Notes under the pieces: model-generated
What the model was told of the DNA's origin: nothing
The model's database searches: none
Seen by the model: the letters and a program-made list of their open reading frames with translations, nothing else
NCBI RefSeq assembly: GCF_000332355.1
Contig: NZ_KB235959.1
Coordinates: 289,260 to 353,259, forward strand
DNA from: Baaleninema simplex PCC 7105
GTDB taxonomy: Bacteria > Cyanobacteriota > Cyanobacteriia > Cyanobacteriales > Geitlerinemataceae
Length of the DNA: 64,000 nucleotides
Direction: 5' to 3'
Part shown: one piece after another, positions 38,070 through 40,160 of the stretch
Layout: every line of letters starts with the position of its first letter
How positions within the stretch are numbered: the stretch's first letter is position 1
Translations under genes and position numbers: made by a program

Positions 38070-38228
38070 GGCAATTCCAGCGATCGACCCAAACTCCACT
38101 CTAACCCCGATTTCTCGTTTACCGAGAATTTTGGGTTTAAAGCCTCGCCCTTCTAGGGCGACTTTACCTAGATATTTTCGTGGTAAAATAAATGTATCCG
38201 CTATGGGTGCTATTGATTAAGTCGAGCT

Positions 38229-39502
38229 GTGTTAGTCAGAGAAGCCAAACTTAAAGACGGAACCCCAGAACAATATCAAGCACTTGATGAAGCCATCCGT
38301 ACAGGACAGTTCGTCAGGAATAAATGCTTGAGGTTGTGGATGGATACCAAAAAGTGTACTAGAGCTAAGATGCAAGCTCTGTGCAAGAGTTTGGCAAGCG
38401 AGTTCCCTTTTGCTAAAAAGCTCAATAGTATGGCTCGACAAGCCCACGCCGACCGTGCTTGGCAGGCGGTTAACCGCTTCTATAAGAACTGTCGGGAAGG
38501 AGTTAAACCCGCTGGTTATCCAAAGTTTAAAAAGCACAACCGCTCGGTCGAATACAAAACCAGCGGATGGAAGCTGTCGAACGATGGATATACCCTCACT
38601 TTCACCGATGGTTTCAAAGCCGGAATCTTCTCTCTCTACTGTAATGGTAAAGCTAGGGAAGACATTCTACGAAGTAAAATTAACCGTGTGAGGGTTGTTC
38701 GTCGCGCCGATGGGTTCTACGCCCAATTCTGCCTAGATATTGAACGTCGGGAACAAGGAACATATACAGGGGATGTTGTAGGTATAGACCTTGGGATAAA
38801 ATATTTCATCAAAGACCAAAACGATAACCCAACCCTATGCCCTCAGTTCCTTAGACAGTCTGAACAAAGACTCAAGAAGCTTCAACGTCAATTGAGTCGA
38901 AGATATCGCCAAGGGAAGAAACAGTCGGCAAACTACCACAAGGCACGTCGGCAACTCGGGAAACAGCACCTTAAAGTTCACCGCCAGCGTAGAGATTGGG
39001 CAATCCCCCCAACCCCCCTTAGCAAGGGGGGCTACGGGGGGATGCGTTAGTGGCATCTAATGATGTCGTGGTGTATGAAGATTTAAGAGTTGCTAACTTA
39101 GTCAAAAATCACAATCTCGCCAAATCCATTTCTGATGCTGCCTGGAGTCAATTCACAGGCTTCCTCGACTACTATGGTAAGGTTTTGGGAAAAGCGGTAG
39201 TCGCTATCAACCCTGCTTTTACCAGTCAAGATTGTCATAACTGCGGGCATCGAGTTAAAAAGTCTCTTAGCACCAGAACACATAAATGTCCCAACTGTGG
39301 AATTGAGATCTGCCGTGATACGAACGCAGCGTTAAACATTCTCAAGCGTGGCATGGAAGCATTAGGAATGGAATGGTCAAACAGTATCGGAGGTCATCCG
39401 AGAACTGCCTCGAAAGAGGGAACGACTGAGGAGACTCCCACCTCTGCTGATGAAGGGAAACCTGATTCAGTAAGTGGTGTCGATGAACCAGTAACTGCTT
39501 AG
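38229..39502 (+). pseudogene. tnpB: RNA-guided nuclease tnpB, interrupted by a 41-bp palindrome
   Basis: The GTG start gives MLVREAKLKDGTPEQYQAL, the normal TnpB N-terminus. The RuvC motifs are all present: Asp in GIDLGIKYF, Glu in VVYEDLRVANL and Asp in CRDTNAALNIL, with the zinc ribbon CHNCG ... CPNCG. After DWA, however, the sequence runs into the palindrome at 39003-39043, changes frame and stops at TAG (39048-39050). Coding resumes as ALVASNDVVVYED. A few codons seem lost at the junction. Without frameshifting, neither half holds the full catalytic set, so the gene is probably inactive. Confidence 0.9.
39003..39043. repeat. 41-bp nested GC palindrome inserted in tnpB
   Basis: ATCCCCCC-AA-CCCCCCTT, loop AGC, AAGGGGGG-CTAC-GGGGGGAT: two 8-bp stems in series. 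The same units are clustered at 28.69-28.80 kb. It replaces coding sequence inside tnpB. Confidence 0.9.
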
Positions 39503-39536
39503 CAGGAATCACCGTCCTTCCAGGGCGGTGAGGATG

Positions 39537-40160
39537 TCAAACGAGACGCACGATGTCGGGAACCGACGCCAAACAAAGCTGTAGCAGCGGATCGTCAGCA
39601 GAGCGGTCGTAGGCTTCGATGTAGAGTTGCGTTAACAGGTGTCGTACTCGGTCTTGAGGGAGGGTTTCAGTGCGATATCCCGGTGCGATCGCCAACAACA
39701 TTTCTGTGGGGGTATCCCCAGCCAACGGTGGCAGAATGTAACGTACGTTTTCGAGGAATTTCGCTCCCAGACGACGGTAGAACTCCAGCCGTCGAGTGGA
39801 AAATGTATCTTCGTCGTTCGGGCGTTCGGCTTCGATGAGGAGGTAGCGATCGCGCGATCGCAAGTGTTTCAACACGTCTTTTAAGAACGCCGATCCGATA
39901 CCGCGATTGCGATAGGCGGCGTCGGTGGCGATGTAACCGAGGAGAACGAGATCGCTGTCTTTGAGTGTATAAAGAATGGTCATGAAGACGACGCGATCGC
40001 CGTCTTTTCCGAGCCAGAGTTCGTAAACGCCCCGAGCGATGCGATCGAGAACCTTGTCTCGACCGACCCGTTCTCGGGCGGGAAACGCCGCTTCGTAGAT
40101 ATCGAGCGCCCTAGCGCAGTCGTCGCTGCGAATATCGTCTGTTTGAGTAAATTGAGTCAC
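39537..40160 (-). CDS. GNAT family N-acetyltransferase
   Basis: 207 residues from the GTG at 40160 (a TTG at 40208 would add 16). The core GYIATDAAYRNRGIGSAFLKDVLKHL holds the acetyl-CoA loop R/QxxGxG (RNRGIG), and RYLLIEAERPND, RLEFYRRLGAKFLENV and YILPPL complete the fold. The substrate is unknown; the long C-terminal helix region (LTQLYIEAYDRSADDPLLQLCL) is typical of one cyanobacterial branch. Its stop codon TCA (39537-39539 on the plus strand) lies in the GGATGTCAA right end of the tnpB element, so the original C-terminus may have been altered by the insertion. Confidence 0.85.
   Translation of the reverse strand: MTQFTQTDDIRSDDCARALDIYEAAFPARERVGRDKVLDRIARGVYELWLGKDGDRVVFMTILYTLKDSDLVLLGYIATDAAYRNRGIGSAFLKDVLKHLRSRDRYLLIEAERPNDEDTFSTRRLEFYRRLGAKFLENVRYILPPLAGDTPTEMLLAIAPGYRTETLPQDRVRHLLTQLYIEAYDRSADDPLLQLCLASVPDIVRLV

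What the first reader, a model, noticed from the sequence alone, without database searches (positions are those of the whole stretch)
38229..39502. tnpB disrupted by a 41-bp nested palindrome
All RuvC and zinc-ribbon motifs of TnpB are present but split by ATCCCCCC...GGGGGGAT, which shifts the frame and creates a stop. It is a direct view of a short palindromic element landing in a coding gene, and it catches these elements as mobile.
Basis: seen in the sequence. Interest (0 to 1): 0.55.

Follow-up and report, generated by a model that had tools for sequence, protein, structure and literature searches.

The report
41-bp hairpin swapped into tnpB
A 41-letter hairpin of DNA, repeated dozens of times in this cyanobacterial genome, has landed in a transposon gene and replaced about 15 letters of it, and comparison with copies that lack it shows the same kind of swap in other genes.

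Summary
Confirmed and extended. Window 39003-39043 is a 41-bp nested palindrome inside an IS605/IS1341-type tnpB (38229-39502); it shifts the frame and brings a stop at 39048-39050. It is not a simple insertion: against four homologues with the empty site, the window gained 41 bp and lost 15 (net +26). The same unit recurs: 42 exact full-length copies in this genome, against 0 for the reversed control. Paralogues and relatives give filled and empty alleles at seven sites (six tnpB, one iscB). At every one the 41-bp unit stands in place of 14-20 bp (15, 17, 20, 20, 20, 14, 18), with no target duplication. Two other small palindromic repeats in the same gene families insert with nothing lost, so the loss is not an alignment artefact. 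Five of the seven swaps keep the frame; the window and iscB do not. The deleted bases are no more hairpin-like, and no more like the element, than other stretches of the genes. Dispersal is shown by filled and empty alleles; enzyme and mechanism are not known. The element resembles cyanobacterial small dispersed repeats, Rickettsia palindromic elements and Haloquadratum small mobile repeats; replacement of a short stretch of target is the distinctive point.

The parts
38118..38167 (+). left end of the IS605/IS1341-type element, hairpin near 38146-38160
   Evidence: similar sequence at other places in the genome
38229..39002 (+). tnpB, 5' part (258 aa)
   Evidence: PF01385 E 2.6e-11; dN/dS 0.053 against L090, no stop
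39003..39043 (.). 41-bp nested palindromic element standing in place of 15 bp of tnpB
   Evidence: 42 exact full-length copies of the unit pattern in the genome
39044..39502 (+). tnpB, 3' part; an ORF from GTG at 39050 (150 aa) carries the zinc-ribbon domain
   Evidence: PF07282 E 7.2e-22; dN/dS 0.16 against L090, no stop
39505..39541 (+). right end of the IS605/IS1341-type element
   Evidence: recurs as a match to the end alone at 19 other places, 95-100% identity
28748..28766 (.). second palindrome of the family in the window, inside a composite of repeated ATCCCCCC units

Best explanation
The 41-bp nested palindrome is a non-coding dispersed element of this cyanobacterium. SHOWN: a unit with fixed ends (AT...AT) is present in some copies of a gene and absent from others, and where it is present 14-20 bp of the target are gone and no target duplication is left. 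In the window this happened in a tnpB whose two halves are otherwise open, so it is probably recent. INFERRED: the unit moves as a folded hairpin, because its ends are exactly the foot of the outer stem. It is joined into a break whose ends have been trimmed by several nucleotides, which gives a narrow range of lost target. An enzyme that recognises hairpin feet (an IS200/605-type Y1 transposase acting in trans, or a structure-specific host nuclease with end joining) would do this; which one is not known. Once in place, copies appear to exchange their centres, and at one site their orientation. Insertions in coding genes seem to survive more often when the net change is a multiple of three.
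For: Seven filled/empty pairs at nucleotide level: window 41 in/15 out; site I 17 out and site II 20 out in the tnpB-A family; site III 20 out; L018 20 out; L126/L130 14 out; iscB L132 18 out. In six of seven an empty relative lies in the same genome; for L018 it lies in other genomes. 42 exact full units in G000, 0 for the reversed pattern. At site II six copies are filled, with centres such as TTTTAAA, TTTCAAA and GAAGTTC, and one (L225) has the opposite orientation with the same junctions. The two tnpB pieces have dN/dS 0.053 and 0.16 and no stop. In frame: 5 of 7 paired sites, binomial P 0.045; 8 of 11 recognised coding sites, P 0.009.
Against: No event was watched. No mobilising gene was identified: of 5 Y1 transposase matches (4 over the cut-off) none is framed by the palindrome. 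Lost lengths vary (14-20 bp), so no fixed cut is proven. Filled copies may spread by gene conversion (site II in L226, site III also in the L013 subfamily), so independent events may be fewer. Four of the 11 coding sites were judged from reading frames alone, and one of them (L039) has a scaffold gap beside the unit. The frame counts were not made blind.
Confidence: 0.55

Rival explanations
1. Replication template switching: a stalled nascent strand jumps to a palindrome elsewhere, copies it and returns 14-20 nt further on. No transposition enzyme is needed.
For: Palindromes stall replication (general knowledge). Composite and tandem copies (L039, L047, L147), and L044, which shares its left flank with L036 but runs into the intergenic composite on the right, show that copies recombine.
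Against: The copied piece is the same unit with the same ends at seven unrelated sites. Likeness of target to element is not above chance (Fisher P 0.38).
Confidence: 0.3
2. RNA-mediated spread: the hairpin is transcribed, copied back and patched into breaks, as proposed for cyanobacterial small dispersed repeats (recalled; the paper is not held).
For: Fixed unit, no coding capacity of its own, no target duplication.
Against: No reverse transcriptase was searched for, and no transcript data are at hand.
Confidence: 0.1
3. The palindrome is ancestral and the empty copies are deleted or corrected versions.
For: None found.
Against: Empty alleles keep the TnpB reading frame and occur in other genera (L090, L159-L163, L189-L191, L229-L232).
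Confidence: 0.03
4. Assembly or sequencing artefact.
For: The assembly has runs of N next to some palindromes (L013, L031, L049).
Against: A 41-for-15 swap is not a read error, and the unit recurs at many sites with different flanks.
Confidence: 0.02

Closest known systems
Small dispersed repeats (SDR) of Nostoc, Elhai et al. 2008 (paper not held; cited in passages of PMC3116915 and PMC4390886)
   Same: Very short repeats in cyanobacteria with predicted mobility; nested copies (recalled).
   Different: SDRs are 21-27 nt (recalled). SDR5 is described as inserted precisely between two bases of HIP1 (PMC4390886, passage); here 14-20 bp of target are lost.
Rickettsia palindromic elements (PMC10969869, passages)
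   Same: Palindromic repeats in frame in unrelated protein genes.
   Different: About 150 bp; here 41 bp, with target replacement and some frameshifts.
Small mobile repeats of Haloquadratum (PMC3119063, section 25 and passages)
   Same: Inverted repeats, no target duplication, unknown mobilisation, often inside IS605-type elements.
   Different: 80-110 bp, archaeal, aimed at the near-terminal palindromes of the elements; loss of target is not mentioned in what I saw. Here they lie in the coding part of tnpB and iscB.
REP/REPIN with RAYT (PMC3116915, passages; defining features recalled)
   Same: Short hairpin preceded by a tetranucleotide, many copies.
   Different: The tetranucleotide is GTAG in only 4 of 35 listed copies (read by eye); no Y1 gene is framed by the palindrome.

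Membership tests
IS605/IS1341-type tnpB (the host gene) | OrfB_IS605 and TNB zinc-ribbon domains | tested here: met
   both pieces over the curated cut-off
REP/REPIN | cognate RAYT (Y1 transposase) framed by the repeat | tested here: not met
   0 of 5 Y1 matches framed; two have a palindrome 0.7-0.8 kb downstream
REP/REPIN | conserved GTAG tag at the foot of the hairpin | tested here: not met
   4 of 35 copies; otherwise mostly TTCG, TTAG, GTTG (by eye)
MITE of a DDE transposon | target-site duplication | tested here: not met
   none at 7 of 7 paired sites
MITE of a DDE transposon | ends shared with a parent insertion sequence | not tested
   no systematic search for a parent element was made
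Small dispersed repeats (Nostoc) | sequence identity with an SDR family | not tested
   the SDR paper is not held
Rickettsia palindromic elements | in-frame residence in unrelated protein genes | tested here: inconclusive
   8 of 11 coding sites in frame, including a PKS, an FGE-sulfatase and a LamG-like protein; no sequence relation tested
Small mobile repeats (Haloquadratum) | inverted repeats, no target duplication, preference for IS605-type elements | tested here: inconclusive
   first two met; tnpB/iscB are 7 of 11 recognised coding sites, but such genes are abundant here, so preference is unproven

The most novel reading that the evidence does not exclude
A replacement-type mobile hairpin: among the smallest known mobile units, it swaps itself for one and a half to two turns of target DNA by a pathway that no known transposase uses, and it supplies a translatable peptide of about 14 residues (such as IPPTPLSKGGEGGI) to the genes it enters.
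Probability: 0.35. Interest if true: 0.75.

Novelty: new variant of a known kind. Interest (0 to 1): 0.5.

Why it matters
How repeats below 100 bp spread in bacteria is an open question. This genome holds filled and empty alleles in closely related paralogues at several sites, so the junctions can be read at single-base level. The steady loss of 14-20 bp is a concrete footprint that any proposed mechanism must explain. It also shows a route by which a non-coding palindrome becomes a short protein segment.

Tried and rejected
Target recognition by the loop: the centre TTAGCAAG resembles the lost TTAAGCAAG in the window, and likenesses were noted at other sites. Local alignment scores of seven targets against the element were not above other stretches of the same genes (Fisher P 0.38; only site II was low, 0.03). 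Target hairpins: the lost stretches looked palindromic by eye (TGTTGCAACA, ACTTTTAAGT), but perfect-stem and fold scores gave P 0.96 and 0.63. Both ideas are dropped.

RAYT-type mobilisation is not supported. A viral carrier: 0 exact full units in IMG/VR. Plasmid relatives of the tnpB: 3 weak records, no better empty allele, not followed.

Distribution: 5 of 386 genomes of the phylum sample hold exact full units (42, 7, 4, 2, 1). Degenerate copies in other relatives (seen as short matches) are not counted by that pattern.

In print: searches listed no paper that, by title or abstract start, describes this element; most subscription papers are not held, so this is weak.

Dropped rows: the regular expressions missed some empty loci (L209, L211, L212, L214, L217 at site I; L318-L321 and L323 at site III; L229-L231); those were read from the alignments. 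In one search some site I rows read 17 instead of 18 because the right anchor matched one base early; the net change of 24 is. L091 has the empty site but is not an intact gene. The coding sites L146, L101, L039 and L036 carry no deletion estimate.

Full report
OBSERVATION. Window 39003-39043 reads ATCCCCCCAACCCCCCTTAGCAAGGGGGGCTACGGGGGGAT. It is a stem within a stem: outer arms ATCCCCCC/GGGGGGAT, inner arms CCCCCCTT/AAGGGGGG, centre AGC, spacers of 2 and 4 nt. The inner stem is found 0.01 times per shuffled window on average; 61 nt around the element fold at -17.9 kcal/mol as DNA, z -2.68. It lies in a tnpB (38229-39502) flanked by element ends at 38118-38167 and 39505-39541 that recur elsewhere. 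The 5' part matches OrfB_IS605 and the 3' part the TNB zinc ribbon. I saw no tnpA among the ORFs beside it.

EMPTY SITE. Homologues L090 (Spirulina sp. CS-785/01, an open frame of 426 aa), L091, L002 and L003 have 16 bp where the window has 42 between the same anchors: 41 bp gained, 15 lost, net +26, a frameshift with a stop at 39048-39050. L091 has the empty site but is itself broken elsewhere. Identity to L090 and L002 is alike on both sides of the element, which fits two halves of one gene. Both halves have low dN/dS against L090 (0.053 and 0.16) and no stop, which suggests a recent event.

THE SAME UNIT ELSEWHERE. The genome (6.15 Mb) holds 108 places with the loose core CCCCCT-N1-12-AGGGGG, against 2 for the reversed control, and 42 exact full units against 0. 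Of 386 genomes sampled in the phylum 5 have exact full units: 42 here, then 7, 4, 2 and 1 in two other genera, each of another family of the order. Many copies sit in composites of repeated ATCCCCCC blocks. None was found in IMG/VR.

SEVEN PAIRED SITES. In a family of closely related tnpB copies, site II is filled in six loci and empty in eleven loci of the same genome and in six loci from five relatives; the 41-bp unit replaces 20 bp. Site I of that family is filled in two loci and loses 17 bp. Site III, in another tnpB family, is filled in L281 and loses exactly 20 bp against six same-genome loci read (alignment). The tnpB L018 loses 20 bp against L189, L196 and L190. The tnpB L126/L130 loses 14 bp against L277 and L229-L232. 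The iscB L132 loses 18 bp in its HNH region against L268-L272 and L275. With the window the losses are 15, 17, 20, 20, 20, 14 and 18 bp. At three junctions one neighbouring base also differs, so single losses could be off by one. No target duplication is seen at the seven.

CONTROL. Two unrelated small palindromic repeats in the same gene families show no loss: a 51-bp repeat in tnpB L314 and in iscB L271, L272 and L275, with a longer version in tnpB L012, and a 48- or 63-bp repeat in the tnpB-A family. The same alignments thus tell clean insertion from replacement.

READING FRAME. Five of seven paired sites are in frame (binomial P 0.045). With four coding sites judged from frames alone, 8 of 11 are (P 0.009). 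Those four are an FGE-sulfatase (L146), a LamG-like protein (L101, my reading of the sequence), a polyketide synthase (L039, with a scaffold gap beside the unit) and a transposase that is not in frame (L036). The translated unit gives peptides such as IPPTPLSKGGEGGI. Frame keeping points to selection on the host genes, but the list was not made blind, so the P values are indicative only.

AFTER INSERTION. At site II the centre differs among copies (for example TTTTAAA, TTTCAAA, GAAGTTC), and L225 carries the unit in the opposite orientation with identical junctions. L044 and L036 share the left flank and differ on the right, L044 running into the composite repeat. Resident palindromes therefore seem to recombine with one another.

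MECHANISM. Shown: a fixed 41-bp unit, filled and empty alleles, loss of 14-20 bp. Inferred: a hairpin whose foot defines its ends is joined into a trimmed break. Likeness of target to element and target hairpins were tested and are not above chance. A RAYT-like partner was looked for and not found. Template switching without an enzyme remains the chief rival.

COMPARISON. Haloquadratum small mobile repeats (PMC3119063, section 25 and passages) share inverted repeats, lack of duplication and IS605-type targets. Rickettsia palindromic elements (PMC10969869, passages) share in-frame residence. Cyanobacterial small dispersed repeats (Elhai et al. 2008, not held; cited in passages of PMC3116915 and PMC4390886) share size class and host group. 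In the passages I saw, none is said to replace target bases; I could not read the Elhai paper. I file this as a new variant of a known kind.

Noticed in passing
L012 and L314 (tnpB), L271/L272/L275 (iscB): A second element, GCGGTGCGACCCCGCGCCGTCGCAC..., 51 bp (longer in L012), sits in tnpB and iscB genes with no target loss; in L012 it lies within the stretch that the window copy lost.
   Followed up: partly
L208-L213, L215, L218, L219, L222, L223 (tnpB-A family): A third palindromic element of 48 or 63 bp (...CGCTCAGCGTTGAGTCCGAGCGGAGTCGAGGA...), length a multiple of three, flanked by CTCAA on both sides.
   Followed up: partly
L032 and L279/L315: In two tnpB subfamilies the 41-42-bp unit stands in place of roughly 87 bp (counted by eye) with the same left and right junctions, the right one being that of site III. 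Unexplained: secondary deletion or conversion.
   Followed up: no
window 39505-39541 and 38118-38167: The right end recurs alone at 19 places; about seven left-right end pairs lie 190-340 bp apart, as in miniature derivatives without tnpB.
   Followed up: no
L281, query positions 507-628: A further 121-bp repeat, identical at several other places in the genome, lies in the same tnpB copy as a filled site III.
   Followed up: no
L039: The unit and tandem pieces of it lie in frame in a polyketide synthase gene next to a scaffold gap.
   Followed up: no
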